Shown here: piece after piece, positions 9,167 to 32,188 of the stretch | Numbering within the stretch: the first letter of the stretch is position 1 | Layout: each line of letters starts with the position of its first letter | DNA from: Pseudeuparius sepicola | Lineage: Eukaryota; Arthropoda; Insecta; Coleoptera; Anthribidae | Length of the DNA: 64,000 nt | NCBI GenBank assembly: GCA_963920635.1 | Contig: OY987302.1 | Location: forward strand, 43,031,500-43,095,499 | Direction: 5' to 3' | Notes under the pieces: model-generated | Told to the model about the DNA's origin: nothing | The model's input: the letters and a program-made list of their open reading frames with translations, nothing else | The model's database searches: none | Translations under genes and position numbers: made by a program

Positions 9167-9180
9167 AGTAGTTAAGTAAA

Positions 9181-9258
9181 GCGGATCCTGGCTCAAAGAT
9201 GGCCGCCATATGTGAGCCAGCTTCCGCATAAGGGTTTTGAGCCTGAGCCAGGATCCGC
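9181..9258. repeat. Subterminal hairpin, left tip
   Basis: GCGGATCCTGGCTCA (9181-9195) and TGAGCCAGGATCCGC (9244-9258) are perfect 15-bp inverted arms around a 48-nt loop. The loop holds a partial direct repeat of the right arm (TGAGCCAGCTTCCGCAT). The hairpin begins 15 bp from the element end. In protein-primed or hairpin-primed linear genomes such structures lie at replication origins; that role here is inference. A G-rich stretch (9287-9310) follows. Confidence 0.8.
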
Positions 9259-9329
9259 ATAGGGTTTTCGGGGATAAAATCTAGCGGTGGGGGGGATTTG
9301 TGTGGGGGGATCCCCTCCACTTTTTTTAG

Positions 9330-9337
9330 TATATATT
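9330..9337 (+). promoter_or_regulatory. TATA box of the 106-aa gene, left arm
   Basis: TATATATT lies 74 bp before the ATG at 9404. A start region around CACAGTTC (9363-9370) falls about 30 bp downstream, the expected TATA-to-start distance. The same box occurs mirrored at 25443-25450. Confidence 0.5.
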
Positions 9338-9403
9338 TCGATGTTTGATTGGTAAAGTAGTACACAGTTCTCACTTTTAACTTAACTAAATAAGATTAAA
9401 AGT

Positions 9404-9724
9404 ATGGCATCGTTTGTGACCCATTTAAATAACAGTTTGTTCCTGAAGAAATTCATTAGGGTCCAAGATTTGGAAGTCAACCGAAAGTTTGAGGTACATG
9501 CATTTACGAAAATAAACACCAAGTTCGGCGAGAAGATATCCTTGGAATTCGACGATTTCAAAACAATTTTACCGCAAAGGTTCACGGTAGAATTTACAGA
9601 AGAACGAATTGAGCAAGTAAACAAGGACATTTTCAACGGGCGAAAGTATTATCTTATTAGTTATGGACCTGTCGGGAAAACAACTAATATTCAATTTTCC
9701 GTCCAAGAACCGGAACAGCTATAA
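9404..9724 (+). CDS. 106-aa putative OB-fold-like DNA-binding protein, left copy
   Basis: Identical to the right-arm gene at 25056-25376, where the product is described. This copy reads inwards from the left tip, starting at an ATG 238 bp from the element end. Confidence 0.65.
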   Translation: MASFVTHLNNSLFLKKFIRVQDLEVNRKFEVHAFTKINTKFGEKISLEFDDFKTILPQRFTVEFTEERIEQVNKDIFNGRKYYLISYGPVGKTTNIQFSVQEPEQL

Positions 9725-9739
9725 AAATACTTTGGAGTC

Positions 9740-10087
9740 TCACATTCGAAAATTACAGAAACTAAAATATGAAATTGATATATATGAAATTAATAAGAAC
9801 TTTAAACAATTAAAAATAAAATATATATAGCATAAGAGATGTTTCATTTCTTCTACCCATAGTAAATTAATAAAATAACAAACTACCCAGCAGGTGTACA
9901 ACAAAGTAATAGTATAAAAAAAGTGCAAAACTGAAACTTGAATTAAAACCAAACACAATTTTTTCTTGCAGCTTGATGTAGCTCCAAACAAAAAATAATA
10001 ATGCCTAATGATAAAAATTCTAACAAAAATAATAATTTCTGTGCCCTCTAAGGAAGTCCATACATAGTCCCCATGCAAATTCCCCAT
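9740..10087 (-). CDS. Hydrophobic 115-aa ORF, left copy (doubtful)
   Basis: Mirror copy of 24693-25040; see that entry for the reservations. It converges on the 106-aa gene with 15 bp between the stop codons. Confidence 0.3.
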   Translation of the reverse strand: MGNLHGDYVWTSLEGTEIIIFVRIFIIRHYYFLFGATSSCKKKLCLVLIQVSVLHFFYTITLLYTCWVVCYFINLLWVEEMKHLLCYIYFIFNCLKFLLISYISISYFSFCNFRM

Positions 10088-10939
10088 GTAAAGTCCCCAT
10101 TTTAAGTCCCACTTAAGCCGCCCACTTTAGACGCCAACTTTCGACGCCAACTTTCGACGCCAACGTCTCAGTTGGATGCAGTACTTTTATAAGGATCTAC
10201 TAAGTAGGAGGAAGCTTTTCAGTTCCCACCTACAATTCTATAAACAGCCAATCCAGCGCAGATAGTGACTCGAACCATTTTTGGCATAATTCCAGAGAAA
10301 GTTAACCCTTTCAGAGTTTTACACCCGACCGTTCAAATTAGTTACACCTTCACCTGGTTTTAGTACCTTGAATCTTTTTGTGCCGAGTCAACAAAAATGC
10401 AGACAAGTTTGCCCCCTTTTACTTTTATAGCAGGCTGTTCACATTCTTTAGACTTTCACCTGTTTCTAAATCTTCTTGCGCGACCCTTCCTTCAAGGGAT
10501 AATCTTACATAACAATGATCCACTTTTAAATGTTTTTTGTCAGACTTTTTTTTTTATAGTCCTGTAAATGGCATGTTATAAAAATTTACTGCCTGGTAGT
10601 TTTATAGCAGACTGTTCAAATTATTTAGATTTTCACCTGCTTGTAAATCTTCTCGTGCGACCCTACCTGAGATTTTAATAAAAAAAGGCTTTCAATGTTA
10701 AAACTTAAATGAGAATATTTTGCTGTTATTGTTATTTTGATAAAAAAAACTGTGTACATTATTAATATTCCACTTAAAATTCCTCGATAAAAATATTGCT
10801 TTAAAGTGGGTTAGTAAGGAATAGGTAAACAAAACTAAACAAGAAACCAGTATATAAATAAAACAAACTAAAATTAATTAATGTTTTGTTTTATTAAAAT
10901 AATTCATATATTTTGTTACAATAAACTTATATACAAATA

Positions 10940-11437
10940 TTAGCACTGTCGTTGTCTGCGTAGACGGTCGAACCAGCCTTCATAATATGCATAATTATAA
11001 GTCGTTCGATTTCGTATTATGTCCTCATTATTCGCAAATCGAAAATACCCTGCCACATAGCCAGATTCGTATTCGATTTGACGCTGATGATTAAACCACC
11101 CTGCGTAGTACGCCTTATTATATGCAATGATATCAGATTTAGCCATGTAAATGTCATTAGCGTTCGCAAAACACTGACCGTATCTGATCCATCCATCTTG
11201 ATATCCTGCACCATATTGAACTTTATCCATTTTCACGTCACCCTCCAGAAAACGCCTATTCTTACCAGCCTGATGATCAAACCATCCCGCGTATAAACCT
11301 TCATTATAGTGCCTCACATGAGTGTCCCTTAATCGCCTAATTGGATTTGCGTTTTCTTCCGTTTTCCACTGACTATACGAACTCCATCCTGCACTGTATC
11401 CATCATCTGTCACTTTTCTTTTATTCTGAGAATACAT
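10940..11437 (-). CDS. 165-aa triple AGW-repeat protein, left copy
   Basis: Identical to the right-arm gene 23343-23840, with the same ATG choice and the same upstream TATA box (mirrored at 11541-11548). Transcription runs toward the left tip. Confidence 0.75.
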   Translation of the reverse strand: MYSQNKRKVTDDGYSAGWSSYSQWKTEENANPIRRLRDTHVRHYNEGLYAGWFDHQAGKNRRFLEGDVKMDKVQYGAGYQDGWIRYGQCFANANDIYMAKSDIIAYNKAYYAGWFNHQRQIEYESGYVAGYFRFANNEDIIRNRTTYNYAYYEGWFDRLRRQRQC

Positions 11438-11853
11438 CTCAACGAGTGTTATAAACTTTTGCCACAATTATCTAACTGAAGCAATATTTAATTCTTTGTA
11501 TTGAATTGAATTTAGTGAATTTTGTTAAGGATGTGGCTGCCTTTTATATTTAACGTAAGCATTGCCTATCCCCACTCAACAGCGTTGTCGTCTAATTAGA
11601 AAATAGAGCAATTTGAAGTAGAAAATTTTTTGGCAACGCCGAAGGGGTGGAGTTACCCCCACTCCCACCAGAGCAAAGTTAACGCCTAAATTAAAAAGTA
11701 GCAACGTTGAGAGCCATCCCCACCAACGCATTCATTTTAAAATCTACAAAAGGGTGTAGAAATTCAGCAAAAGCATCAGTTTTCTAAATTTTGTTGAATT
11801 GTGTTCGAGTTTTGTCGTGTGTTATTTTTAAATTTATTACTTTGCTTATAATT

Positions 11854-12872
11854 ATGAGTGTGTTCCAAACTAAGGCGATTGTCCACTACAATGCTGTTGT
11901 GAGGGTAAGTCAAAACTTATTTTTTATAATTATTAAATACGTTATTTCAATTTGCTTCGAGAAACTATTTTGCTTTTTCGCATCAGAAAATTTTTAGCCA
12001 ACTTTTTTCTTGTTAGCCGCAAGTTGGAGATTTTCTTATGCGAAAAATATTTTTTTATTTGCGATATACTAACATTCAATAATTATTATAGTCACCATCT
12101 GCTTATAATCTCATCGAGACGCTTGCGGCAGAGGGGTCAGTTGAAAATTCATCCGAAGAAAACAATGTTGATCATGTAAGTAGACATGTTTATGAATTCT
12201 AACAAATAATAAATGTTTATCTTATACTTATAGTATTCCGAAGTGGACGATGAAAGCATTAGAAGCGCAACATCGTTTGCTGTGTCGCAGATCGAGCGTG
12301 AGCTGGCACATGAACAATCGGTATATGTACAGCCTGCACAACCTGCCGAATCGACACATGTGCAGCCTGCGCAATTGACATATGTACAGCCTGAACAACC
12401 CGCACCTGAATATTCGGCACATGTGCAGCCTGCGCAATTGACATATGTACAGCCTGAACAACCCGCACCTGAATACGAGCAACCCGCGCAACCTGCAGGG
12501 CATGCGTCGCCTGCTCAGTCTGAGCAAACCCACCGGCAGAACGTCTCCAGTCCTGTGAGGACTGTTGGGAAAAATATGGAGACGTTGAGAGCGGTTTATA
12601 ACAGGGGGCGCCGCACAAACAGGTTTCCGGATGACAGCTTCGATTTTGAAGATCCAGCAGCTGGAGGACGTCACAATTTGGAACTTAATAAAGTGCTGGA
12701 AGATAATGTTGTCGTCTTACAGCTTCAAAGTAATAAGCTGGCCAAAAACAAGGCTGGTTTAAAAAATAAAATAGATAGGTTAGATAAATTAAGAAAAATT
12801 TTAGTAAATAGGATTAGTATAATAGAAATAGATGAAGCGCGTGTGAATAAAATATTAACTAGTTATAAGTAA
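11854..12872 (+). CDS. Three-exon gene for a 257-aa Gln/Pro-repeat protein, left copy
   Basis: The exons are 11854-11904, 12092-12175 and 12234-12872, all joined in phase 0. They are identical to the right-arm copy at 21908-22926, where the evidence for the introns and the domain layout are given. An initiator TCAGT (11776-11780) lies about 30 bp after a weak TATA-like TACAAAAG (11745-11752). Confidence 0.75.
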
Positions 12873-13051
12873 GCATAAGTTGAATCATATATATATATAA
12901 TATTACACATAGTTTTAAACCAACGCTTTGTTATTCATTTCTCACCCAATACCATTATAAACACCAAGCAATAAAATTTTATTACGTGCAATACAGAGTC
13001 GCTCGGTAGCTAAATACAAAAGTAATATTTTTCTCCTAAGCAGACCATACT

Positions 13052-13740
13052 TTAGCATAAGCGTACGTGCACACTTCCGGCTGAGGGAGATGTAAGAAAG
13101 GTAAAAAATATAGTCAGGGGATTTTACATAGCGATCGTCCTCGCTCGAACTCGCACGGACAAGCAGTAGCAAGCGGATACCTAAAATCCCAGAACATTTG
13201 TAGTATCAAACTGTAGTTTTTAAGTAAATATTTTATTAAACGTTTATTTTCTTATATTCGAGAATTTAATTTAAATAATAATAATAATAAAACAATTATC
13301 CAATAATACATTTCATTTACAATAATACCAATGGCCTAGTTTTTGCACCTGTTTTACATATTAAGCATGTATCTTGCCGAAAAGCTATGCTTTAGCATAA
13401 CCGTACGTGCACACTTCCGGCTGAGCGATGTAAGAAAGGTAAAAAATACAGCCAGAGGATTTTACATAGCGATCATCCTCGCACGGACAAGCAGTAGCAT
13501 GCGACTACCTAAAATCCCAGAACATTTGTAGGTATCAAACTGTAGTTTTTAATTAAATATTTTATTTCACGTTTATTTTCTTATAGTCAGGAATTTAATT
13601 TAAATAATAATAATAAAAACAGAATTATCCAATAATACATTTTATTTACAATAATACATTTTATTTACAATAATGGTATAATTTTTGCACCTGCTTTACA
13701 CATCAAGCAGGTGTCTTGCCGAAAAGCTATGTAAAGCTTT
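13052..13740. repeat. Tandem duplication of a gene 3' end, left copy
   Basis: Mirror of 21040-21728: two direct copies of about 345 bp, the one nearer 13740 containing the last codons of the Zn-ligand gene. See the right-arm entry. Confidence 0.7.
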
Positions 13741-14165
13741 TCTTTACAGGCACTACACCGCATGAATCTTTGCAAAGGCATTTCTGTCAAAGAAAAATGT
13801 AAAGTTTCATGCCGATGCTTCGCATTGTCGGTGAAACCATTCAGGGAAACCTCTGTAAAATCTACCACATACGCACGGTAACAATTTAGGCACAAACGCG
13901 CCCTTTCTGTTACCTTTACATATGCGGCAGATACACAGAGGCCCCCCACTGTCCAGTTATTATAACCCTCGCTCGGGTTAATGGGTACACTTTTCGCCAC
14001 GACGGAGTCATCGCGGTCAACGTCTACCCCTTCATCTTCGTCACTAGCATCATCGTCGTCAATGTCGTCTATGTCTCTTCTCAATTCTGCAGGCACCGTT
14101 TTCTCAATCTCTTCTTTTTCTTCTAACGCAAGTTGGTATAGGGAATTATTTATGGAGGCAGCCAT
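13665..14165 (-). CDS. 166-aa acidic Zn-ligand protein, left copy
   Basis: Identical to the right-arm gene 20615-21115. Its TATA box is mirrored at 14230-14237 and its TCAGT at 14202-14206. Confidence 0.75.
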   Translation of the reverse strand: MAASINNSLYQLALEEKEEIEKTVPAELRRDIDDIDDDDASDEDEGVDVDRDDSVVAKSVPINPSEGYNNWTVGGLCVSAAYVKVTERARLCLNCYRAYVVDFTEVSLNGFTDNAKHRHETLHFSLTEMPLQRFMRCSACKEKLYIAFRQDTCLMCKAGAKIIPLL

Positions 14166-14229
14166 TGTTATTAAATTTAATTTGTTTGGAGAAAAACTGT
14201 AACTGATGTCTATTGAGATATCTCCAGAG

Positions 14230-14318
14230 TTTTTATAGTCTAAAACATCAACCTGTACGAGATGTCTAGGAGGGGATCCTAGTGTTTTATGTCCTATTTA
14301 AATATATGCTATAAAAAG
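14230..14318. promoter_or_regulatory. Divergent TATA pair between the Zn-ligand gene and the KAND ORF, left copy
   Basis: A minus-strand TATAAAAA (14230-14237) serves the Zn-ligand gene. A plus-strand TATAAAAAG (14310-14318) points toward the KAND ORF and ATPase. The spacing of about 75 bp suggests one shared bidirectional control region. The mirrored pair lies at 20462-20550. Confidence 0.55.
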
Positions 14319-14676
14319 TGATACATTTTTTTAAATTTTAATTCATCCATTTCAGAAAACTGTATTTTTTGCTGTTTTTTATTTTGAAATAAATGGAACA
14401 ACTAATCTGCATATTTGAGTTATTCCAAATTTCATAAAGATTGCAACTACTGATTTTCTTTTATGAATTGACGTGTAATCAATACAATGAAAATATTAGA
14501 TTTTTAATACAGGTCGTGCCCTCTATTTCTGTAGGGAAACAACTACAGTCGTGCTTCAAAAGTACTACCAATTGATCGATATTTCGCCGAATACTTTACC
14601 CTTGCAACAGGTATGCGCAAGGGGGTTCGAAAGATACCGCTGGGTGGTTCGAAGGCCCCGCCGTCGAGGGCGCGCT

Positions 14677-15069
14677 ATGAGTCTCAGGAACGCGGCGGCT
14701 GTCACAAAGAGAGAGATGGGAGATATGGAACTGAAAATTTGGAGCACTCCAAAGGCGAATGATCTAAAGGCAAAGGCAAATGATTCAAAGGCAAAGGCAA
14801 ATGATCGGAAGGCAAATGATTCGAAGGCAAAGGCAAATGATCCAAAGGCAAAGGCAAATGATCGGAAGGCAAAGGCAAATGATCCGAAGGCAAAGGCAAA
14901 TGATCGGAAGGCAAATGATTCGAAGGCAAAGGCAAATGATCCAAAGGCAAAGGCAAATGATCGGAAGGCAAAGGCAAATGATCCGAAGGCAAAGGCAAAT
15001 GATCGGAAGGCAAAGGCAAATGATCCGAAGGCAAGTGATCCGAAGGCAAATGATCCAAAGGCAAATTAA
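14677..15069 (+). CDS. 130-aa KAND-repeat ORF, left copy
   Basis: Mirror of 19711-20103. In this arm the upstream open frame reads RRPRRRG where the right arm reads RRLRRRG, the only difference noticed between the arms. It lies before the chosen ATG. See the right copy for doubts about coding. Confidence 0.4.
   Translation: MSLRNAAAVTKREMGDMELKIWSTPKANDLKAKANDSKAKANDRKANDSKAKANDPKAKANDRKAKANDPKAKANDRKANDSKAKANDPKAKANDRKAKANDPKAKANDRKAKANDPKASDPKANDPKAN
14754..15064. repeat. 12/18-bp minisatellite, left copy
   Basis: Alternating units built on GGCAAA, GGCAAATGATC and a variable final base pair, in 18-bp (two lysine codons) and 12-bp forms. Units contain no stop in most frames, so long ORFs appear in five frames and openness alone does not prove coding. 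The copy number is identical in both arms. Confidence 0.9.
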
Positions 15070-15103
15070 AAATATAGTATGAATGTATTGTAACAATGTG
15101 TTA

Positions 15104-15140
15104 GTATATAATAAAGATAAAATTAAGTATAATTGTCAGT
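15104..15140 (+). promoter_or_regulatory. Promoter of the ATPase gene, left copy
   Basis: TATATAATA (15104-15112) and an arthropod-type initiator TCAGT (15136-15140) are about 30 bp apart. The ATG follows at 15162, giving a very short leader. The TATA region overlaps an AATAAAG that may serve as the poly(A) signal of the upstream KAND ORF. Confidence 0.6.
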
Positions 15141-15161
15141 GTTTTATTCCCCACCTACGTG

Positions 15162-15728
15162 ATGTATATGTGTGATATTTGCGGTACAACATTTTGTAGA
15201 TCGGATAGTTTTACAAGACACAAGAATATTCACAGAACTATTATTTTTATGTGTGAATTCTGTAGTAAAACGTTTTCGAGAAAAGATAACTTAAAAACTC
15301 ATAAAAGAATCCACCAACTTCAAAACGACTTAGTTGTTAGCGAGGTCGTTGGATACAACGATTCGAAAGACGCGATGCAAATCCATCAGCAGACAGTTTC
15401 ACTTCCAGTAGAAAACCTAGATATTGTGCAAGAAAGTAGTGCTAAATCTAAACACGGTGTACTGTTTCCAAACTCATTTAGGGCAATTTTTTGTGGACCT
15501 AGCGGATGTGGAAAAACCAACGCTTTACTTAGTTTAATATTTAATGAAAACGGACTAAAATTCGAGAATATTTACTTGTACAGTAAGTCACTGTACCAAC
15601 CCAAGTATCAGTTATTGCAAGACGTGCTTAAACAAGTTAGTGGCGTTGGATATTTTCCCTTTAACTCAAACGATGATGTAATTGGTCCATCAGAGGCTAG
15701 AGAAAATTCAAAAAACCCATATTTGTAG
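15162..15728 (+). pseudogene. Truncated zinc-finger ATPase, left copy
   Basis: The first 183 codons are identical to the right-arm ATPase, including both C2H2 fingers and the Walker A motif. At 15709/15710 the sequence leaves the inverted repeat and the frame ends after five unrelated residues. Walker B, the sensor region and the rest of the ATPase core are missing, so it cannot be an active motor. A stable fragment could still bind DNA or interfere with the full protein. The cut defines the inner edge of the duplicated arm. Confidence 0.9.
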
Positions 15729-15740
15729 AACGTTGTTTTA

Positions 15741-16376
15741 TTAAACCAACCTTCTCCTATACAAATCAGCCAACAGAAACTCTTTGTAAAAACAGAAGAG
15801 TTCAAAAATACAAAAGGTTTCTATACTAAATGTAATATTACATAATATTAATATAATGTCTGTTTCATTTAAGTTACTACTTACTACTAGATGATTGACT
15901 TTATCTAAGAAATTACAATAGAAATCATAAAAATCAAAGCGGAGCAAAAAGCCAAATCTCAAAGATGCACTTATGCTAACGTTTAACAATTCAAAAATAT
16001 CTGCCTCGGTAAAATAAACATACACATTATTTTTTCTAAGCGACACGTGCTGATTTCCATCGGCGTCAATCACCGTACTTAGAACCATACGTGAGTCGAA
16101 TCTGGCAAACATTGGAGCTCCACCATTATTAATAAATTCACATACATGTTCCAATAATTTATTCCATTCAGAGTAGTTCAAGGAAATTACTGTCCGATCA
16201 TGACAAAGGTATGTGATGATTACTGCTGGCTCAAAATATTTCTTGAGACTCAACCCTGTATGAATGAATAATCCATTAGTTGATTTGATCGGAAAACATG
16301 CTGCCAAAAGCAAAGAATCTTCTACAATATCATTTTCACTGCTGCTTACATCGGATTCGTAACCACTGTCAGACAT
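15741..16376 (-). CDS. 211-aa uncharacterised protein, last gene of the central block
   Basis: I chose the ATG at 16374-16376 (MSDSGYESD). An upstream extension would need a TTG and would overlap the integrase stop. The N terminus (1-20) is Ser/Asp/Glu-rich. Residues about 45-80 (KYFEP, VISLNYSEWNKLL) have an SxxEW-type spacing slightly reminiscent of PC4-like ssDNA-binding folds, which is too weak to name it. The middle has a beta-rich stretch (VLSTVIDADGN, VYVYFTEADIFELL) and the C-terminal third is aromatic and hydrophobic. It begins 25 bp after the integrase stop on the same strand. Its stop lies 31 bp from the arm junction, so downstream genes of the ancestor may have been lost here. Confidence 0.7.
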   Translation of the reverse strand: MSDSGYESDVSSSENDIVEDSLLLAACFPIKSTNGLFIHTGLSLKKYFEPAVIITYLCHDRTVISLNYSEWNKLLEHVCEFINNGGAPMFARFDSRMVLSTVIDADGNQHVSLRKNNVYVYFTEADIFELLNVSISASLRFGFLLRFDFYDFYCNFLDKVNHLVVSSNLNETDIILILCNITFSIETFCIFELFCFYKEFLLADLYRRRLV

Positions 16377-16401
16377 TTTGGCGGTTCGTTCACCGAGAGA
16401 A

Positions 16402-17346: not shown

Positions 17347-17379
17347 TGTTCAACTGCTCAATTCCAACTTAAAATGAAA

Positions 17380-17727
17380 TTACTTTACACCGCTCTTTTG
17401 TTTATCCAATTTCAGTTGTTCTTTAATCACATCCTGCTCTTGTGTTATTTTCTCTATGGCAGTTTGCAAAGCAACAGTATTTAATTCTAACAACTCTTTA
17501 AAATCCTGTATTTGCTGGGAAACGTTATTTTTAAAGTCGTTTACTGACCGTAATAAAAAGTTATGACGCTCATCTAATATATTTCTAAGCTTTTCGTTAT
17601 CTTTATTATATTGAAATGAAATAGCTGAAGCATCGCTATTCAATTTTTGGTTTTGGGACAAAGGAGAGTGCACAATGCCGCTAGCCTTTTTGTATTTCGA
17701 CGAGCGTCCGAACTTGTTAAGAGTCAT
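17380..17727 (-). CDS. 115-aa basic and coiled-coil protein
   Basis: The N terminus (about 1-20) is basic (KFGRSSKYKKASG). From about residue 40 the sequence is predicted-looking coiled coil rich in E, K, Q, N and L heptads (NEKLRNILDERHNFL, ELLELNTVALQTAIEKI), ending in a lysine-rich tail. I do not recognise the family. Its place between the DUF8207-like protein and the integrase, 36 and 33 bp from them, argues for a conserved part of the element. A structural or oligomerising role is only inference. Confidence 0.7.
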   Translation of the reverse strand: MTLNKFGRSSKYKKASGIVHSPLSQNQKLNSDASAISFQYNKDNEKLRNILDERHNFLLRSVNDFKNNVSQQIQDFKELLELNTVALQTAIEKITQEQDVIKEQLKLDKQKSGVK

Positions 17728-17763
17728 TTTGTAACTAACTGTATATTGACAGTAATTATACTT

Positions 17764-18687: not shown

Positions 18688-18715
18688 GTTGGCTACTAAT
18701 AAAGATACCGAGTCA

Positions 18716-19618
18716 CTAGAGTTTTATATAGCTATCAAATCCTTTTCTGTATCGCCCATTATCTAAACTAAAGTCTTTGGCTATCACTAATGTTCCAAAA
18801 ACACTACCATTCCAACAAAATGAGCAAAGGTTTTTAAACTGCTCGTAGGTGATATCTGGTGACACATGTTCATCATAGACATGCTTCAGATTAACGTCAT
18901 CCTGTTTGAACAGAATAATCATGTTACAATTGTCTCGTATTAATTGCTTAGGAATTTTAGAATATGTCTGACAAAGATAGACAACATCTATAGATTTATG
19001 ACGTCCCATTGAATAAAATTCTCTAATTTTATCTTGTTTATCGCAAGGCACGTCATCAAATATGAAAACCGAATTTTCTCTAGCCTCTGATGGACCAATT
19101 ACATCATCGTTTGAGTTAAAGGGAAAATATCCAACGCCACTAACTTGTTTAAGCACGTCTTGCAATAACTGATACTTGGGTTGGTACAGTGACTTACTGT
19201 ACAAGTAAATATTCTCGAATTTTAGTCCGTTTTCATTAAATATTAAACTAAGTAAAGCGTTGGTTTTTCCACATCCGCTAGGTCCACAAAAAATTGCCCT
19301 AAATGAGTTTGGAAACAGTACACCGTGTTTAGATTTAGCACTACTTTCTTGCACAATATCTAGGTTTTCTACTGGAAGTGAAACTGTCTGCTGATGGATT
19401 TGCATCGCGTCTTTCGAATCGTTGTATCCAACGACCTCGCTAACAACTAAGTCGTTTTGAAGTTGGTGGATTCTTTTATGAGTTTTTAAGTTATCTTTTC
19501 TCGAAAACGTTTTACTACAGAATTCACACATAAAAATAATAGTTCTGTGAATATTCTTGTGTCTTGTAAAACTATCCGATCTACAAAATGTTGTACCGCA
19601 AATATCACACATATACAT
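18716..19618 (-). CDS. C2H2 zinc-finger and A32-like packaging ATPase fusion
   Basis: 300 aa. ZF1 has C4, C7, H20 and H24. ZF2 has C31, C34, H47 and H51, with TFSRKDNLKTHKRIH in classic form. A linker (about 52-100) leads to an ATPase with Walker A GPSGCGKT (112-119), Walker B VFIFDDV (184-190) and a sensor-like segment LCQTYSKIPKQLIRDN (215-230). This order fits the FtsK/HerA-superfamily genome-packaging ATPases of Polintons and related viruses, which drive DNA into capsids. I do not know N-terminal C2H2 fingers as standard in that family; they may target the motor to element DNA. The ATG was chosen one codon after an in-frame GTG. The 5' 183 codons lie in the right inverted repeat and the remainder in the unique centre. 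Confidence 0.9.
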   Translation of the reverse strand: MYMCDICGTTFCRSDSFTRHKNIHRTIIFMCEFCSKTFSRKDNLKTHKRIHQLQNDLVVSEVVGYNDSKDAMQIHQQTVSLPVENLDIVQESSAKSKHGVLFPNSFRAIFCGPSGCGKTNALLSLIFNENGLKFENIYLYSKSLYQPKYQLLQDVLKQVSGVGYFPFNSNDDVIGPSEARENSVFIFDDVPCDKQDKIREFYSMGRHKSIDVVYLCQTYSKIPKQLIRDNCNMIILFKQDDVNLKHVYDEHVSPDITYEQFKNLCSFCWNGSVFGTLVIAKDFSLDNGRYRKGFDSYIKL

Positions 19619-19639
19619 CACGTAGGTGGGGAATAAAAC

Positions 19640-19678
19640 ACTGACAATTATACTTAATTTTATCTTTATTATATACTA
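19640..19678 (-). promoter_or_regulatory. Promoter of the ATPase gene and possibly the central block
   Basis: On the minus strand TATATAATA (19678-19670) precedes an initiator TCAGT (19644-19640), with the ATG at 19618. The following four genes are only 25-36 bp apart and leave no obvious room for separate TATA promoters. This may therefore drive one long transcript, or the downstream messages may arise by splicing or internal initiation. Confidence 0.55.
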
Positions 19679-19710
19679 ACACATTGTTACAATACATTCA
19701 TACTATATTT

Positions 19711-20103
19711 TTAATTTGCCTTTGGATCATTTGCCTTCGGATCACTTGCCTTCGGATCATTTGCCTTTGCCTTCCGATCATTTGCCTTTGCCTTCGGATC
19801 ATTTGCCTTTGCCTTCCGATCATTTGCCTTTGCCTTTGGATCATTTGCCTTTGCCTTCGAATCATTTGCCTTCCGATCATTTGCCTTTGCCTTCGGATCA
19901 TTTGCCTTTGCCTTCCGATCATTTGCCTTTGCCTTTGGATCATTTGCCTTTGCCTTCGAATCATTTGCCTTCCGATCATTTGCCTTTGCCTTTGAATCAT
20001 TTGCCTTTGCCTTTAGATCATTCGCCTTTGGAGTGCTCCAAATTTTCAGTTCCATATCTCCCATCTCTCTCTTTGTGACAGCCGCCGCGTTCCTGAGACT
20101 CAT
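19711..20103 (-). CDS. 130-aa KAND-repeat ORF, right copy
   Basis: From the first ATG the product starts MSLRNAAAVTKREMGDMELK and then consists of repeated KAND and KAKAND units up to the stop, with a modest net positive charge. If made, it could resemble a disordered basic core or DNA-condensing protein. The minisatellite opens several frames on both strands, so coding is uncertain. A plus point is the stop placed directly after the array, followed by AATAAAG. The open frame continues upstream of the ATG through an RRPRRRG/RRLRRRG stretch. A donor-like CAG|GTATGC near 20,170 suggests an unspliced leader, and I could not define exons. Confidence 0.4.
   Translation of the reverse strand: MSLRNAAAVTKREMGDMELKIWSTPKANDLKAKANDSKAKANDRKANDSKAKANDPKAKANDRKAKANDPKAKANDRKANDSKAKANDPKAKANDRKAKANDPKAKANDRKAKANDPKASDPKANDPKAN
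19716..20026. repeat. 12/18-bp minisatellite, right copy
   Basis: Reverse complement of 14754-15064 with the same order of 12- and 18-bp units. Tandem arrays normally change length quickly, so equal arrays in both arms are further evidence that the arms are young or homogenised. Confidence 0.9.
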
Positions 20104-20461
20104 AGCGCGCCCTCGACGGCGGAGCCTTCGAACCACCCAGCGGTATCTTTCGAACCCCCTTGCGCATACCTGTTGCAAGGGTAAAGTATTCGGCGAAATA
20201 TCGATCAATTGGTAGTACTTTTGAAGCACGACTGTAGTTGTTTCCCTACAGAAATAGAGGGCACGACCTGTATTAAAAATCTAATATTTTCATTGTATTG
20301 ATTACACGTCAATTCATAAAAGAAAATCAGTAGTTGCAATCTTTATGAAATTTGGAATAACTCAAATATGCAGATTAGTTGTTCCATTTATTTCAAAATA
20401 AAAAACAGCAAAAAATACAGTTTTCTGAAATGGATGAATTAAAATTTAAAAAAATGTATCA

Positions 20462-20578
20462 CTTTTTATAGCATATATTTAAATAGGACATAAAACACTA
20501 GGATCCCCTCCTAGACATCTCGTACAGGTTGATGTTTTAGACTATAAAAACTCTGGAGATATCTCAATAGACATCAGT
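20462..20578. promoter_or_regulatory. Divergent promoter region, right copy
   Basis: A plus-strand TATAAAAA (20543-20550) is followed at the expected distance by TCAGT (20574-20578) and the Zn-ligand ATG at 20615. A minus-strand TATA (20470-20462) faces the KAND ORF. Confidence 0.6.
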
Positions 20579-20614
20579 TACAGTTTTTCTCCAAACAAAT
20601 TAAATTTAATAACA

Positions 20615-21115
20615 ATGGCTGCCTCCATAAATAATTCCCTATACCAACTTGCGTTAGAAGAAAAAGAAGAGATTGAGAAAACGGTGCCTGCAGAATTGAG
20701 AAGAGACATAGACGACATTGACGACGATGATGCTAGTGACGAAGATGAAGGGGTAGACGTTGACCGCGATGACTCCGTCGTGGCGAAAAGTGTACCCATT
20801 AACCCGAGCGAGGGTTATAATAACTGGACAGTGGGGGGCCTCTGTGTATCTGCCGCATATGTAAAGGTAACAGAAAGGGCGCGTTTGTGCCTAAATTGTT
20901 ACCGTGCGTATGTGGTAGATTTTACAGAGGTTTCCCTGAATGGTTTCACCGACAATGCGAAGCATCGGCATGAAACTTTACATTTTTCTTTGACAGAAAT
21001 GCCTTTGCAAAGATTCATGCGGTGTAGTGCCTGTAAAGAAAAGCTTTACATAGCTTTTCGGCAAGACACCTGCTTGATGTGTAAAGCAGGTGCAAAAATT
21101 ATACCATTATTGTAA
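20615..21115 (+). CDS. 166-aa acidic Zn-ligand protein, right copy
   Basis: Residues 31-52 are strongly acidic (DIDDIDDDDASDEDEG). The C-terminal half holds a set of candidate zinc ligands: C92 and C95, H117, H119 and H123, C137 and C140, C153 and C156. This would fill one or two sites in a zinc-ribbon or RING-like arrangement. The spacing does not match a family I can name. An acidic arm next to a zinc module suits a transcription regulator or protein-protein adaptor, but this is inference. TATA, initiator and ATG are well spaced upstream. Duplicated AATAAAATG words just after the stop give poly(A) signals. The gene's 3' end is tandemly duplicated downstream. Confidence 0.75.
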   Translation: MAASINNSLYQLALEEKEEIEKTVPAELRRDIDDIDDDDASDEDEGVDVDRDDSVVAKSVPINPSEGYNNWTVGGLCVSAAYVKVTERARLCLNCYRAYVVDFTEVSLNGFTDNAKHRHETLHFSLTEMPLQRFMRCSACKEKLYIAFRQDTCLMCKAGAKIIPLL

Positions 21116-21728
21116 ATAAAATGTATTATTGTAAATAAAATGTATTATTGGATAATTCTGTTTTTATTATTATTATTTAAATTAAATTCCTGACTATAAG
21201 AAAATAAACGTGAAATAAAATATTTAATTAAAAACTACAGTTTGATACCTACAAATGTTCTGGGATTTTAGGTAGTCGCATGCTACTGCTTGTCCGTGCG
21301 AGGATGATCGCTATGTAAAATCCTCTGGCTGTATTTTTTACCTTTCTTACATCGCTCAGCCGGAAGTGTGCACGTACGGTTATGCTAAAGCATAGCTTTT
21401 CGGCAAGATACATGCTTAATATGTAAAACAGGTGCAAAAACTAGGCCATTGGTATTATTGTAAATGAAATGTATTATTGGATAATTGTTTTATTATTATT
21501 ATTATTTAAATTAAATTCTCGAATATAAGAAAATAAACGTTTAATAAAATATTTACTTAAAAACTACAGTTTGATACTACAAATGTTCTGGGATTTTAGG
21601 TATCCGCTTGCTACTGCTTGTCCGTGCGAGTTCGAGCGAGGACGATCGCTATGTAAAATCCCCTGACTATATTTTTTACCTTTCTTACATCTCCCTCAGC
21701 CGGAAGTGTGCACGTACGCTTATGCTAA
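21040..21728 (+). repeat. Tandem duplication of the Zn-ligand gene 3' end
   Basis: A unit of about 345 bp occurs twice in direct order. The first copy runs from the last codons (CATAGCTTTTCGGCAAGA) to GTACGGTTATGCTAAAG. The second runs from 21,389 (same start) to GTACGCTTATGCTAAAG near 21,728. In the second copy the coding end is broken by base changes, so it is a relic. The units share poly(A) signals and a GC-rich block around CGGAAGTGTGCACGTACG. They differ by several percent, much more than the two arms do, so the duplication predates the arm duplication. Confidence 0.75.
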
Positions 21729-21907
21729 AGTATGGTCTGCTTAGGAGAAAAATATTACTTTTGTATTTAGCTACCGAGCGACTCTGTATTGCACGTAATA
21801 AAATTTTATTGCTTGGTGTTTATAATGGTATTGGGTGAGAAATGAATAACAAAGCGTTGGTTTAAAACTATGTGTAATATTATATATATATATGATTCAA
21901 CTTATGC

Positions 21908-22926
21908 TTACTTATAACTAGTTAATATTTTATTCACACGCGCTTCATCTATTTCTATTATACTAATCCTATTTACTAAAATTTTTCTTAATTTATCTAA
22001 CCTATCTATTTTATTTTTTAAACCAGCCTTGTTTTTGGCCAGCTTATTACTTTGAAGCTGTAAGACGACAACATTATCTTCCAGCACTTTATTAAGTTCC
22101 AAATTGTGACGTCCTCCAGCTGCTGGATCTTCAAAATCGAAGCTGTCATCCGGAAACCTGTTTGTGCGGCGCCCCCTGTTATAAACCGCTCTCAACGTCT
22201 CCATATTTTTCCCAACAGTCCTCACAGGACTGGAGACGTTCTGCCGGTGGGTTTGCTCAGACTGAGCAGGCGACGCATGCCCTGCAGGTTGCGCGGGTTG
22301 CTCGTATTCAGGTGCGGGTTGTTCAGGCTGTACATATGTCAATTGCGCAGGCTGCACATGTGCCGAATATTCAGGTGCGGGTTGTTCAGGCTGTACATAT
22401 GTCAATTGCGCAGGCTGCACATGTGTCGATTCGGCAGGTTGTGCAGGCTGTACATATACCGATTGTTCATGTGCCAGCTCACGCTCGATCTGCGACACAG
22501 CAAACGATGTTGCGCTTCTAATGCTTTCATCGTCCACTTCGGAATACTATAAGTATAAGATAAACATTTATTATTTGTTAGAATTCATAAACATGTCTAC
22601 TTACATGATCAACATTGTTTTCTTCGGATGAATTTTCAACTGACCCCTCTGCCGCAAGCGTCTCGATGAGATTATAAGCAGATGGTGACTATAATAATTA
22701 TTGAATGTTAGTATATCGCAAATAAAAAAATATTTTTCGCATAAGAAAATCTCCAACTTGCGGCTAACAAGAAAAAAGTTGGCTAAAAATTTTCTGATGC
22801 GAAAAAGCAAAATAGTTTCTCGAAGCAAATTGAAATAACGTATTTAATAATTATAAAAAATAAGTTTTGACTTACCCTCACAACAGCATTGTAGTGGACA
22901 ATCGCCTTAGTTTGGAACACACTCAT
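21908..22926 (-). CDS. Three-exon gene for a 257-aa Gln/Pro-repeat and coiled-coil protein, right copy
   Basis: The exons on the minus strand are 22926-22876, 22688-22605 and 22546-21908. Both introns have GTAAGT-type donors (AGG|GTAAGT and CAT|GTAAGT) and pyrimidine/AT-rich TATAG acceptors, and all junctions are phase 0. The 17 and 28 codons of exons 1 and 2 join the 212 codons of exon 3. The protein has an acidic N part (NSSEENNVDHYSEVDDES) and a repeat region with HVQPAQLTYVQPEQPAPEY in two copies plus shorter variants. A basic stretch (YNRGRRTNRF) follows, then a C-terminal Lys/Leu-rich coiled coil (about 185-250). Function is unknown; a virion scaffold or nuclear factor is possible. Introns show it is expressed in the nucleus. 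Confidence 0.75.
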
Positions 22927-23231
22927 AATTATAAGCAAAGTAATAAATTTAAAAATAACACACGACAAAACTCGAACACAATTCAACAAAATTTAGAAAA
23001 CTGATGCTTTTGCTGAATTTCTACACCCTTTTGTAGATTTTAAAATGAATGCGTTGGTGGGGATGGCTCTCAACGTTGCTACTTTTTAATTTAGGCGTTA
23101 ACTTTGCTCTGGTGGGAGTGGGGGTAACTCCACCCCTTCGGCGTTGCCAAAAAATTTTCTACTTCAAATTGCTCTATTTTCTAATTAGACGACAACGCTG
23201 TTGAGTGGGGATAGGCAATGCTTACGTTAAA

Positions 23232-23266
23232 TATAAAAGGCAGCCACATCCTTAACAAAATTCACT
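23232..23266 (+). promoter_or_regulatory. Promoter of the triple-repeat gene, right copy
   Basis: TATAAAAG (23232-23239) is followed 29 bp later by ATTCACT (23261-23266), a fair initiator. The first ATG after it in frame is at 23343. Confidence 0.6.
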
Positions 23267-23342
23267 AAATTCAATTCAATACAAAGAATTAAATATTGCT
23301 TCAGTTAGATAATTGTGGCAAAAGTTTATAACACTCGTTGAG

Positions 23343-23840
23343 ATGTATTCTCAGAATAAAAGAAAAGTGACAGATGATGGATACAGTGCAGGATGGAGTT
23401 CGTATAGTCAGTGGAAAACGGAAGAAAACGCAAATCCAATTAGGCGATTAAGGGACACTCATGTGAGGCACTATAATGAAGGTTTATACGCGGGATGGTT
23501 TGATCATCAGGCTGGTAAGAATAGGCGTTTTCTGGAGGGTGACGTGAAAATGGATAAAGTTCAATATGGTGCAGGATATCAAGATGGATGGATCAGATAC
23601 GGTCAGTGTTTTGCGAACGCTAATGACATTTACATGGCTAAATCTGATATCATTGCATATAATAAGGCGTACTACGCAGGGTGGTTTAATCATCAGCGTC
23701 AAATCGAATACGAATCTGGCTATGTGGCAGGGTATTTTCGATTTGCGAATAATGAGGACATAATACGAAATCGAACGACTTATAATTATGCATATTATGA
23801 AGGCTGGTTCGACCGTCTACGCAGACAACGACAGTGCTAA
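23343..23840 (+). CDS. 165-aa protein of three AGW-type repeats, right copy
   Basis: Starting at the first ATG (an upstream TTG in frame was rejected), the protein has three related modules of about 40 residues at roughly 13-56, 76-118 and 125-159. Each opens with a GYxAGW-like word (DGYSAGW, AGYQDGW, SGYVAGY) and closes with a YN-x-A-YYAGWF-like word (YNEGLYAGWFDHQ, YNKAYYAGWFNHQ, YNYAYYEGWFDR). A basic tail ends RRQRQC. The Gly-Trp/Tyr pattern suggests a repeated small beta or helical unit. I do not recognise the family. There is no signal peptide or membrane segment. The poly(A) signal AATAAA is at 23885-23890. Confidence 0.8.
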   Translation: MYSQNKRKVTDDGYSAGWSSYSQWKTEENANPIRRLRDTHVRHYNEGLYAGWFDHQAGKNRRFLEGDVKMDKVQYGAGYQDGWIRYGQCFANANDIYMAKSDIIAYNKAYYAGWFNHQRQIEYESGYVAGYFRFANNEDIIRNRTTYNYAYYEGWFDRLRRQRQC

Positions 23841-24111
23841 TATTTGTATATAAGTTTATTGTAACAAAATATATGAATTATTTTAATAAAACAAAACATT
23901 AATTAATTTTAGTTTGTTTTATTTATATACTGGTTTCTTGTTTAGTTTTGTTTACCTATTCCTTACTAACCCACTTTAAAGCAATATTTTTATCGAGGAA
24001 TTTTAAGTGGAATATTAATAATGTACACAGTTTTTTTTATCAAAATAACAATAACAGCAAAATATTCTCATTTAAGTTTTAACATTGAAAGCCTTTTTTT
24101 ATTAAAATCTC

Positions 24112-24464
24112 AGGTAGGGTCGCACGAGAAGATTTACAAGCAGGTGAAAATCTAAATAATTTGAACAGTCTGCTATAAAACTACCAGGCAGTAAATTTTT
24201 ATAACATGCCATTTACAGGACTATAAAAAAAAAAGTCTGACAAAAAACATTTAAAAGTGGATCATTGTTATGTAAGATTATCCCTTGAAGGAAGGGTCGC
24301 GCAAGAAGATTTAGAAACAGGTGAAAGTCTAAAGAATGTGAACAGCCTGCTATAAAAGTAAAAGGGGGCAAACTTGTCTGCATTTTTGTTGACTCGGCAC
24401 AAAAAGATTCAAGGTACTAAAACCAGGTGAAGGTGTAACTAATTTGAACGGTCGGGTGTAAAAC
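24112..24464 (+). promoter_or_regulatory. Three tandem TATA-bearing modules
   Basis: Two closely related modules of about 70 bp (24112-24180 and 24288-24358) share GGGTCGC, AGAAGATTTA, CAGGTGAAA and GAACAG, and end in GCTATAAAA. A third, weaker one (about 24395-24464) shares CAGGTGAAGG and GAACGG and ends GGTGTAAAAC. All point toward the tip. No long ORF crosses them. They may be alternative promoters, an enhancer or an origin-associated array. The mirrored array is at 10316-10668. Confidence 0.45.
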
Positions 24465-24588
24465 TCTGAAAGGGTTAACTTTCTCTGGAATTATGCCAAA
24501 AATGGTTCGAGTCACTATCTGCGCTGGATTGGCTGTTTATAGAATTGTAGGTGGGAACTGAAAAGCTTCCTCCTACTTAGTAGATCCT

Positions 24589-24690
24589 TATAAAAGTACT
24601 GCATCCAACTGAGACGTTGGCGTCGAAAGTTGGCGTCGAAAGTTGGCGTCTAAAGTGGGCGGCTTAAGTGGGACTTAAAATGGGGACTTT
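24589..24690 (+). promoter_or_regulatory. TATA box and short GC-rich repeats before the hydrophobic ORF
   Basis: TATAAAAG (24589-24596) is followed by three copies of TTGGCGTC-AAAG words (24616-24655) and then AAGTGGG- and ATGGGGA-type repeats. The first ATG after the box opens only a 26-codon frame; the second opens the 115-codon hydrophobic frame. Confidence 0.45.
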
Positions 24691-24692
24691 AC

Positions 24693-25040
24693 ATGGGGAA
24701 TTTGCATGGGGACTATGTATGGACTTCCTTAGAGGGCACAGAAATTATTATTTTTGTTAGAATTTTTATCATTAGGCATTATTATTTTTTGTTTGGAGCT
24801 ACATCAAGCTGCAAGAAAAAATTGTGTTTGGTTTTAATTCAAGTTTCAGTTTTGCACTTTTTTTATACTATTACTTTGTTGTACACCTGCTGGGTAGTTT
24901 GTTATTTTATTAATTTACTATGGGTAGAAGAAATGAAACATCTCTTATGCTATATATATTTTATTTTTAATTGTTTAAAGTTCTTATTAATTTCATATAT
25001 ATCAATTTCATATTTTAGTTTCTGTAATTTTCGAATGTGA
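24693..25040 (+). CDS. Hydrophobic 115-aa ORF, right copy (doubtful)
   Basis: The product would have about three hydrophobic segments (near 18-37, 43-76 and 84-112) rich in F, I, L, Y and C. Its start overlaps a shorter ORF that begins at an earlier ATG. AT-rich DNA readily encodes such residues, so this may be chance. In favour are an upstream TATA box and a start directly downstream of it. If real it would be a small membrane protein. It ends 15 bp from the convergent 106-aa gene. Confidence 0.3.
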   Translation: MGNLHGDYVWTSLEGTEIIIFVRIFIIRHYYFLFGATSSCKKKLCLVLIQVSVLHFFYTITLLYTCWVVCYFINLLWVEEMKHLLCYIYFIFNCLKFLLISYISISYFSFCNFRM

Positions 25041-25055
25041 GACTCCAAAGTATTT

Positions 25056-25376
25056 TTATAGCTGTTCCGGTTCTTGGACGGAAAATTGAATATTAGTTGT
25101 TTTCCCGACAGGTCCATAACTAATAAGATAATACTTTCGCCCGTTGAAAATGTCCTTGTTTACTTGCTCAATTCGTTCTTCTGTAAATTCTACCGTGAAC
25201 CTTTGCGGTAAAATTGTTTTGAAATCGTCGAATTCCAAGGATATCTTCTCGCCGAACTTGGTGTTTATTTTCGTAAATGCATGTACCTCAAACTTTCGGT
25301 TGACTTCCAAATCTTGGACCCTAATGAATTTCTTCAGGAACAAACTGTTATTTAAATGGGTCACAAACGATGCCAT
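25056..25376 (-). CDS. 106-aa putative OB-fold-like DNA-binding protein, right copy
   Basis: Starts at an ATG 237 bp from the right tip. The pattern LFLKKFIRVQDLEVNRKFEV, AFTKINTKFGEKISLEF, FKTILPQRFTVEFTEERI and KYYLISYGP resembles a small all-beta protein (OB-fold-like). I recall it from insect mobile or virus-like elements, where a single-strand DNA-binding role is suspected. That name is a guess from pattern. Lying next to the element end would suit a replication or terminus-binding factor. The frame is intact in both arms. Confidence 0.6.
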   Translation of the reverse strand: MASFVTHLNNSLFLKKFIRVQDLEVNRKFEVHAFTKINTKFGEKISLEFDDFKTILPQRFTVEFTEERIEQVNKDIFNGRKYYLISYGPVGKTTNIQFSVQEPEQL

Positions 25377-25521
25377 ACTTTTAATCTTATTTAGTTAAGT
25401 TAAAAGTGAGAACTGTGTACTACTTTACCAATCAAACATCGAAATATATACTAAAAAAAGTGGAGGGGATCCCCCCACACAAATCCCCCCCACCGCTAGA
25501 TTTTATCCCCGAAAACCCTAT

Positions 25522-25599
25522 GCGGATCCTGGCTCAGGCTCAAAACCCTTATGCGGAAGCTGGCTCACATATGGCGGCCATCTTTGAGCCAGGATCCGC
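25522..25599. repeat. Subterminal hairpin, right tip
   Basis: Mirror of 9181-9258, with perfect 15-bp arms (25522-25536 and 25585-25599) 14 bp from the element end. Confidence 0.8.
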
Positions 25600-25613
25600 T
25601 TTACTTAACTACT

Positions 25614-25619
25614 GATCGG
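25614..25619. other. Right 6-bp target-site duplication of the Polinton
   Basis: GATCGG follows the element end CTTAACTACT and is then continued by TAAAGTCAAGC of the interrupted repeat. Confidence 0.95.
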
Positions 25620-32040: not shown

Positions 32041-32057
32041 TAAATAACTATTTTCGT

Positions 32058-32188
32058 CACCAAACTGATTACAAGACAACTTTTTCAAGTTGCCTGGAAA
32101 ATTCATAAATTCTTAACAGTAAATGAACGAACGAATGAATGAATGAATTTTCCAGGCAACAAAAAGTTGTCTTTTAATCAGTTTGGTG
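32058..32188. repeat. Short foldback with about 50-bp arms
   Basis: CACCAAACTGATTACAAGAC and GCCTGGAAAATTCAT on the left are answered by ATGAATTTTCCAGGC and GTCTTTTAATCAGTTTGGTG on the right. A GAAT-type short repeat lies near the turn. Confidence 0.8.

What the first reader, a model, noticed from the sequence alone, without database searches (positions are those of the whole stretch)
9167..25613. A Polinton whose inverted repeats make up 80 percent of the element
The element has 6-bp duplications (GATCGG) and AG termini. Its arms are 6,543 bp each around 3,361 bp of unique DNA, with one mismatch noticed and no net indels. Polinton inverted repeats are usually a few hundred to about a thousand bp. 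Here six ORFs and part of a seventh are present twice in mirror image. This looks like a new palindromic form of a virus-like transposon.
Basis: partly seen in the sequence, partly recalled or inferred. Interest (0 to 1): 0.9.

Follow-up and report, generated by a model that had tools for sequence, protein, structure and literature searches.

The report
Palindromic defective Polinton, helper beside it
A virus-like transposon in an insect-type genome lost its polymerase and capsid genes, kept two mirror copies of one end, and spread to dozens of places alongside the fuller version it most likely lives off.

Summary
It is not an assembly quirk. Ten other copies fetched from the genome have the same mirror structure, each with its own perfect 6-bp duplication. 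The arm/centre junction occurs 57 times genome-wide.

The same genome holds the probable parent, a canonical Polinton of about 19.4 kb (76 polymerase/centre junctions). It has 107-bp terminal repeats, PolB, integrase, ATPase and a double-jelly-roll capsid gene. In the palindromic form the PolB block is replaced by an inverted 1-kb piece of the ATPase end. The capsid block is replaced by an inverted copy of the opposite end.

Three copies appear to have only the first change and could be the intermediate. Arms within a copy are usually far more alike than arms of different copies, so the halves are kept alike as the element spreads.

Best reading: a satellite-like, defective genome with its own integrase that borrows replication from the fuller element. 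That borrowing is inferred. A second Polinton family here also looks palindromic, with PolB in its arms; this is a lead only.

The parts
9161..9166 (.). 6-bp target-site duplication GATCGG, left copy
9167..15709 (+). left arm, 6,543 bp
   Evidence: 1 mismatch to reverse complement of 19071-25613
9167..9273 (+). 107-bp ancestral TIR, the only part shared with the right end of the PolB-bearing copy that was read
   Evidence: L048:3860-3966 matches, 99.1%
9404..9724 (+). ORF 106 aa, unknown
   Evidence: no Pfam match
10940..11437 (-). ORF 165 aa, unknown
   Evidence: no Pfam match
13665..14165 (-). ORF 166 aa, only a weak zinc-ribbon match below the cut-off
14701..14703 (+). junction J1 in the left arm: ancestral left end joined to inverted KAND/ATPase 5' segment, no shared bases, one T found in neither flank of the parent copy read
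   Evidence: 151 genome matches
14750..15066 (+). KAND tandem repeat (15/21 bp units, 99-bp higher unit)
15162..15728 (+). truncated 5' copy of the ATPase ORF (188 aa)
15709..15710 (+). junction J2: inverted ATPase 5' segment joined to the centre where the PolB block ends in the parent; no shared base
   Evidence: 57 genome matches
15710..19070 (+). unique centre, 3,361 bp
15741..16376 (-). ORF 211 aa, unknown
   Evidence: no Pfam match
16402..17346 (-). integrase, 314 aa: rve core (1.7e-14); chromodomain-like tail below the cut-off (4.1e-4)
   Evidence: all 40 scored hits (of 1,237 candidates) 100% identical over 945 bp
17380..17727 (-). ORF 115 aa
17764..18687 (-). ORF 307 aa, unknown
18716..19618 (-). 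complete ATPase ORF, 300 aa: A32-type (Pox_A32 5e-11) with N-terminal C2H2 fingers; crosses the centre/right-arm border, where the parent's sequence is colinear
19071..25613 (-). right arm, 6,543 bp
20077..20079 (-). mirror copy of J1 in the right arm; in the parent the capsid block starts here
25614..25619 (.). 6-bp target-site duplication GATCGG, right copy

Best explanation
The element is a defective, symmetric derivative of a canonical Polinton that is present beside it. Shown: the parent form has 107-bp TIRs, PolB, centre (integrase), ATPase region and a capsid block. In the palindromic form the 4.85-kb PolB block is replaced by an inverted 1-kb copy of the ATPase 5'/KAND segment (junctions J1 and J2, no shared bases), and the 3.8-kb capsid block is replaced by an inverted copy of the left end. 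Inferred: a non-homologous joining first swapped PolB for the inverted 1-kb piece; recombination or template switching in that new 1-kb inverted repeat then copied the left arm over the capsid end, giving 6.5-kb mirror arms with no further junction. Inferred: the product supplies its own integrase and ATPase and has the terminal sequence at both ends, while PolB (and capsid, if it is packaged) comes from fuller copies, so it spreads like a defective viral genome. Shown: arms are kept alike within most copies. Inferred: this happens through fold-back (panhandle) replication or gene conversion between the arms.
For: Parent structure: L047, L049, L048 and L013, read as separate pieces. PolB ORF 1,245 aa: 5,170 homologues at E <= 0.001 among 7,973 scored candidates, many of the 120 listed carrying PF03175 or named DNA polymerase; it matches 5 of 6 PF03175 loci tested here, main stretches 42-47% identical. 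Capsid PF21738 2.6e-77, PLA2-like 1.2e-11. 37 of 40 capsid-end hits lie 8.02-8.23 kb in register with a PolB/centre junction; three copies of 19.3-19.4 kb carry both parent-type ends. The left end of one parent-type copy is 100% identical to the window arm over 2,534 bp. Palindromic form: J2 57 times; 10 of 10 other fetched copies palindromic, 11 of 11 perfect 6-bp TSDs; 0 of 127 listed capsid hits within 12 kb of a J2 (126 of 1,984 candidates were scored). Candidate intermediate: 3 copies. Homogenised arms: mean 2.5 differences within copies against 14 between, 9 of 11 copies mutually closest; equal unit counts in 30 of 34 copies against 19.6 expected from shuffles.
Against: The three intermediate-like copies carry a seventh A at J2, unlike the palindromes (6) and the parent copy read (6), so they may be later recombinants; two of the three are a local tandem, and no capsid gene of the C3 one is among the listed hits. 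Only one parent copy was read over most of its length: its outer left ~3.2 kb and its TSD were not seen, and its ATPase frame is interrupted at residue 47, so that copy is not itself shown to be fully functional. One of 76 PolB/centre junctions (C10:7136612) lies 10.8 kb from a J2, and one J2 (C1:87762826) has a PF03175 fragment nearby; neither was read. No read, transcript or replication data, so mobilisation in trans is not shown. Homogenisation is incomplete: L031/32 has arms of two lineages, L023/24 is a near tie, 4 of 34 copies have unequal unit numbers.
Confidence: 0.78

Rival explanations
1. Two successive end replacements, as in poxvirus terminal transposition: first the capsid end was lost and replaced by an inverted left end (J1), then the PolB side was replaced by an inverted copy of the new right end (J2).
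For: Both junctions lack shared bases, as in non-homologous joining of two genomes in opposite orientation, the model described for pox ITR expansion (PMC10230479, passages). J1 is present in both arms, so J1 precedes or accompanies J2.
Against: It predicts PolB-bearing copies with J1 at the right; 0 of the 42 PolB/centre junctions in the part of the genome covered by the 100 listed J1 hits have a J1 within 20 kb. The other 34 junctions could not be checked this way, and one of them (C10:7136612) lies near a J2. Copies with J1+J2 and a capsid side do exist.
Confidence: 0.3
2. Assembly artefact (missed-adapter or collapsed palindrome).
For: Arms are nearly identical, and reads could not be inspected.
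Against: 11 of 11 checked copies have different flanks and perfect 6-bp TSDs; copies differ from each other by about 14 differences per arm and some carry private structural variants; one-sided, capsid-bearing versions share J1 and (but for one A) J2.
Confidence: 0.01
3. The arms are alike because of gene conversion between the integrated inverted arms on the chromosome, not because of replication of the element.
For: Young chromosomal inverted repeats convert readily (established knowledge). Differences of 0-3 single bases between the arms of one copy are usual (10 of 11 copies).
Against: The same symmetric variant (714-bp spacing doubled in both arms) occurs at three separate insertion sites, so symmetry existed before those insertions spread, unless conversion happened three times.
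Confidence: 0.35
4. A self-sufficient palindromic Polinton type that is the older form, the PolB-bearing element being a recombinant.
For: Copy numbers are similar (57 against 76 junctions). The ATPase frame of the one parent copy read is interrupted, that of the window copy is open.
Against: The parent has an uninterrupted PolB ORF where the palindrome is joined, and is colinear with the window across the ATPase; the palindrome has no PolB or capsid sequence and carries a truncated second ATPase 5' end.
Confidence: 0.04

Closest known systems
Polintons / Mavericks (self-synthesising virus-like transposons), insect type
   Same: rve integrase, A32-type ATPase, 6-bp TSD, AG...CT termini; the parent form has PolB, double-jelly-roll capsid and 107-bp TIRs
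   Different: palindromic form has 6.5-kb arms (vertebrate intact range 46-1,447 bp, PMC8097293 passage), no PolB, no capsid block. 'Long TIR' are mentioned for Polinton-like viruses such as PgVV (PMC4642659 passages; lengths not in the passages)
Poxvirus terminal transposition / ITR expansion (PMC10230479, passages read)
   Same: one genome end replaced by an inverted copy of the other at a non-homologous junction, lengthening the terminal repeat and deleting genes
   Different: here the product is an integrated, multi-copy transposon that lost its polymerase; that pox genomes keep their core is from general knowledge
Adenovirus symmetric recombinants (SYREC-type defective genomes; recalled, the searches listed no relevant paper)
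   Same: linear protein-primed genome, one end duplicated in mirror image, essential genes lost, helper needed
   Different: the adenovirus cases (recalled) are packaged virion DNA; here copies are integrated with TSDs and the centre is the element's own
Teratorn (giant piggyBac/herpesvirus transposon; PMC6431247 passage)
   Different: herpesvirus and piggyBac genes, 41-182 kb, internal TIRs at the repeat borders; unrelated origin
Foldback-type DNA transposons such as Galileo (title and abstract listing only)
   Same: very long inverted termini that vary in structure between copies
   Different: P-element-type transposase, not a Polinton

Membership tests
[quoted passage not shown]
   No part of L047:3123-7967 matches the window element; present in the parent form (1,245-aa ORF). 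Protein priming itself was not tested
Polinton/Maverick | retroviral-type (rve) integrase | tested here: met
   PF00665 1.7e-14 on 16402-17346
Polinton/Maverick | 6-bp target-site duplication | tested here: met
   11 of 11 palindromic copies examined; parent copies not checked
Polinton/Maverick | AG...CT termini within terminal inverted repeats | tested here: met
   AGTAGTTAAG...CTTAACTACT in 11 of 11 copies
Polinton/Maverick | TIR of tens to about 1,450 bp | tested here: not met
   6,543 bp in the window copy; 107 bp in the parent form. Yardstick is vertebrate elements only
Polinton/Maverick | A32/FtsK-type packaging ATPase | tested here: met
   PF04665 5e-11 on 18716-19618
Polinton/Maverick | double-jelly-roll major capsid gene | tested here: not met
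   capsid block absent from the window; present in the parent, PF21738 2.6e-77
Polinton/Maverick | adenovirus-type protease and minor capsid protein | tested here: inconclusive
   absent from the window with the capsid block; in the parent a 92-aa ORF with recalled H/D/C motifs and a 240-aa ORF, neither with a Pfam match above its cut-off
Symmetric defective genome (SYREC-like) | mirror duplication of one end with loss of essential genes | tested here: met
Symmetric defective genome (SYREC-like) | replication or packaging depends on a helper | not testable with these tools
   a near-identical helper candidate coexists; dependence is inferred
Pox-type terminal transposition | end replaced by inverted other end at a junction without homology | tested here: met
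   J1 one T of neither flank, J2 no shared base; compared with one parent copy

The most novel reading that the evidence does not exclude
Turning into a palindrome is a recurrent route by which Polintons spawn satellite-like, polymerase-less (or polymerase-doubled) genomes that spread with help from fuller copies and keep their two halves alike by fold-back replication. In this genome it has happened in at least two different Polinton families.
Probability: 0.47. Interest if true: 0.86.

Novelty: new variant of a known kind. Interest (0 to 1): 0.76.

Why it matters
Polintons are thought to be integrated viruses, yet I know of no defective-genome biology described for them, and my searches for it (listings seen) showed no such report in the held library, which lacks most subscription journals. 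This genome preserves a parent form, a candidate intermediate and the palindrome side by side at near identity, so the origin and spread of a defective viral genome can be read directly. Arms kept alike may be a footprint of how a protein-primed linear genome replicates, and the parent/derivative pair makes the question whether Polintons still replicate as episomes or virions directly testable.

Tried and rejected
Assembly artefact: rejected on independent flanks and TSDs. Microhomology at J2: the BLAST boundary (W15703) first suggested 7 shared bases, but reading the bases shows none. Parent TIRs simply being long: a first idea, rejected when the parent's right end shared only 107 bp. J1-first model: kept as a rival. 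The first J2 pattern missed copies with seven A; corrected, which found 3. My draft said that the parent's ATPase frame is uninterrupted; the check showed a stop at residue 47 in the copy read, so that was withdrawn and odds moved slightly (best explanation 0.80 to 0.78, last rival 0.03 to 0.04). The novel case went from 0.50 to 0.47 because of the other matches.

Nothing gained: PDB sequence search with PolB (best E 1.4, unrelated); Pfam on PolB gives no PF03175 match, so its identity rests on homologues; none of the PF03175 genes that I compared (85) lies within 6 kb of this family's PolB/centre junctions, so one search does not count this family's PolB; paper searches for adenovirus symmetric recombinants listed none relevant; searches for insect or beetle Polintons gave context only.
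Full report
Observation. The arms 9167-15709 and 19071-25613 are 6,543 bp each with one mismatch and no indel. The centre is 3,361 bp, the flanks are GATCGG, and the arms make 79.6% of the 16,447 bp.

Not an artefact, not a single copy. The window lies in a 769-Mb assembly of 16 contigs. A probe of the first 1,034 bp gave 40 scored places out of 354 candidates; 28 of the 40 form 14 convergent pairs spanning 16.3-18.6 kb, the window's own included. I fetched 10 of the 13 other pairs as separate halves. In 10 of 10 the two halves are mirror copies (longest aligned block 5.9-7.2 kb), and in 10 of 10 the flanks carry a perfect 6-bp duplication, all different. With the window this is 11 of 11. A 36-base pattern across the left arm/centre junction (J2) matches 57 places with up to 2 mismatches, 55 of them exact; the reversed-pattern control matches 0.

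The parent. A pattern across the right arm/centre border matches 125 places, more than J2, so many copies share only that side. Of four integrase loci fetched, three (L013, L014, L016) leave the window's sequence at the J2 site and one (L015) does not. One such copy (C4:56.55 Mb) was read in separate pieces. Left of the centre lie a 1,245-aa PolB ORF and a 249-aa ORF, then the same left end as the window's arm (W12390-14701) with about 720 extra bases that hold a 176-aa ORF. Right of the centre the sequence is colinear with the window across the ATPase (99.5% over 1,096 bp) to W20077. It then leaves it for a block with a capsid gene (PF21738, 2.6e-77), a PLA2-like gene (1.2e-11) and small ORFs, and rejoins the window's sequence only in the last 107 bp. 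So the TIR of this copy is 107 bp. Its ATPase frame has a stop at residue 47, so this particular copy may not be fully functional; others were not read there. Three copies with both ends in the hit lists (C3:8733907-8753301, C2:95745562-95764952, C2:37344457-37363773) are 19.3-19.4 kb and have the same two different ends over the ~1-kb probes; the left end of the first is 100% identical to the window arm over 2,534 bp. The PolB/centre junction matches 76 places. Of 40 capsid-end hits, 37 lie in register with one; of the other three, two are the J1+J2 copies below and one (C6:32.89 Mb) lies 11.7 kb from a junction. PolB identity rests on homologues: it matches 5 of 6 PF03175 loci tested, main stretches 42-47% identical, and many listed homologues are named DNA polymerase or carry PF03175. 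Pfam itself did not call PF03175 on it.

What changed. Two junctions separate the palindrome from the parent copy read. J1 (W14701/14703) joins the left end to the inverted KAND/ATPase 5' segment with one T found in neither flank. J2 (W15709/15710) joins that segment to the centre, 12 bases after the PolB stop codon, with no shared base. The palindrome lacks the 4.85-kb PolB block, the ~720-base block and the 3.8-kb capsid block. It keeps the integrase (16402-17346), an open 300-aa ATPase (18716-19618), a truncated second ATPase 5' end (15162-15728) and the other centre ORFs. None of the 127 listed capsid hits lies within 12 kb of a J2 (126 of 1,984 candidates were scored). Exceptions not read: one of 76 PolB/centre junctions (C10:7136612) lies 10.8 kb from a J2 (C10:7125771), and a PF03175 fragment lies 5.5 kb from the J2 at C1:87762826, a copy without any listed J1.

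Order of events. J1 matches 151 places (up to 3 mismatches; the 100 listed are exact), and lies in both arms. In the part of the genome covered by the 100 listed hits, 0 of 42 PolB/centre junctions has a J1 within 20 kb. Three copies (C3:59.14 Mb and a tandem pair at C2:73.87 and 73.89 Mb) have J1 and J2 on the left. A capsid end is listed for C3:59.15 and C2:73.89 Mb, and a capsid gene for both C2 copies but not for the C3 one. Two of the three were read across J2. They have seven A where palindromes have six, which is why the first J2 pattern missed them; the seven-A pattern matches exactly these three. The simplest path is therefore: PolB swapped for an inverted 1-kb piece, then the left arm copied over the capsid end through the new 1-kb inverted repeat. 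The alternative, two pox-like end replacements, remains possible. The three copies could also be later recombinants, and their seventh A argues mildly for that.

Arms evolve together. From the terminus to J1 (5.4-6.6 kb), left and right arms of the same copy differ by 0-12 events (mean 2.5, median 1, 11 copies), against means of 13.6 to 14.4 between copies. In 9 of 11 copies the two arms are closer to each other than to any other arm. The exceptions are L023/24, a near tie, and L031/32, whose arms belong to two lineages. The inner repeat region was left out. Among 38 palindromic J2 sites in the covered part, 34 have J1 on both sides; 30 of 34 have equal numbers of the repeated unit, with the same spacing on both sides in all 8 doubled cases (672, 714 or 657 bp), against 19.6 expected when one side is shuffled (1 of 100,000 shuffles reaches 30). 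The 4 unequal copies all have 672-bp spacing. Copies are related, so this is not a strict probability, but three different spacings are each found symmetric. Since J1 and J2 are the same across copies, the form most likely arose once and its arms have been homogenised since.

How it most likely works. The element keeps the integrase and the terminal sequence at both ends, so it can in principle integrate. It has no polymerase, so it should depend on PolB from fuller copies, which are nearly identical in the shared parts: all 40 scored integrase hits have the full score, and 29 of 40 capsid-end hits of the parent form do. Fold-back of a displaced single strand would pair 6.5 kb of arm and offers a simple way to copy one arm onto the other. 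Dependence, fold-back replication and packaging are inferences.

Comparison. Intact vertebrate Mavericks have TIRs of 46-1,447 bp, mean 402 (PMC8097293, passages). Long TIRs are mentioned for Polinton-like viruses without a length in the passages seen (PMC4642659). Pox ITR expansion by non-homologous joining of two inverted genomes gives the same kind of product (PMC10230479, passages). [quoted passage not shown] Adenovirus symmetric recombinants are recalled; two searches listed nothing on them. My searches for palindromic or defective Polintons (listings only) showed no such report; subscription journals are mostly not held.

A second case. Among 86 PolB genes merged from 125 of the listed hits (87 of 1,839 candidates scored), six pairs within 30 kb are all convergent; none is direct or divergent. 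At C5:31.30 Mb two 400-base pieces placed by mirror symmetry inside the pair are 400/400 identical, while two outside are not (127/400). The inner piece recurs at 96-99% as inverted pairs at C3:42.02, C7:27.34 and C2:73.32 Mb, and once singly at C6:41.83 Mb. Against a simple reading: parts of that piece also match many places at 78-92%, some as inverted pairs 10-21 kb apart, so it may be a terminal-repeat-like sequence, and the arrangement could involve nested elements. Ends and TSDs of that family were not read, so it is a lead.

Noticed in passing
G000 C5:31297250-31309203, C7:27332072-27342571, C3:42016954-42028194, C3:44255499-44260540, C2:74764059-74779479, C11:39471801-39479224: Six convergent pairs of PolB genes, no direct or divergent pair among 86 merged genes; one tested pair is mirror-identical 400/400 between the genes. 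Other Polinton families here may be palindromic with PolB in the arms.
   Followed up: partly
G000 C2:73868876-73894490: Two J1+J2 copies lie exactly 15,110 bp apart, a local tandem with a period shorter than the 15.9-kb C3 copy of the same kind.
   Followed up: partly
G000 C10:7125771 and C10:7136612: A palindrome junction (minus) and a PolB/centre junction (plus) only 10.8 kb apart, closer than two full elements allow; possibly a composite or truncated pair.
   Followed up: no
window 14750-15066 and 19714-20030: KAND-type tandem repeat varying in length between copies and coding for a repetitive peptide in one frame.
   Followed up: no
window 13047-13731 (mirror 21049-21733): Two ~340-bp segments about 85% alike in tandem inside each arm.
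   Followed up: no
L031/L032 (G000 C3:15554821-15571804): Palindromic copy whose left and right arms resemble different lineages, probably a recombinant between palindromic elements.
   Followed up: partly
L047:1982-2702: About 720 bases with a 176-aa ORF, starting at a poly-C run, present in the parent copy and absent from both arms of the window copy.
   Followed up: no
window 39170-41670: Two neighbouring ORFs (297 and 543 aa) that look like a non-LTR retrotransposon with reverse transcriptase (recalled motif, no search).
   Followed up: no
G000 C3:38165060-38185737: Three capsid genes with identical scores in 21 kb, two in one direction and one inverted.
   Followed up: no
window 32051-32252: A dispersed repeat, 84-90% alike, also flanks the parent copy at C4:56.563 Mb.
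   Followed up: no
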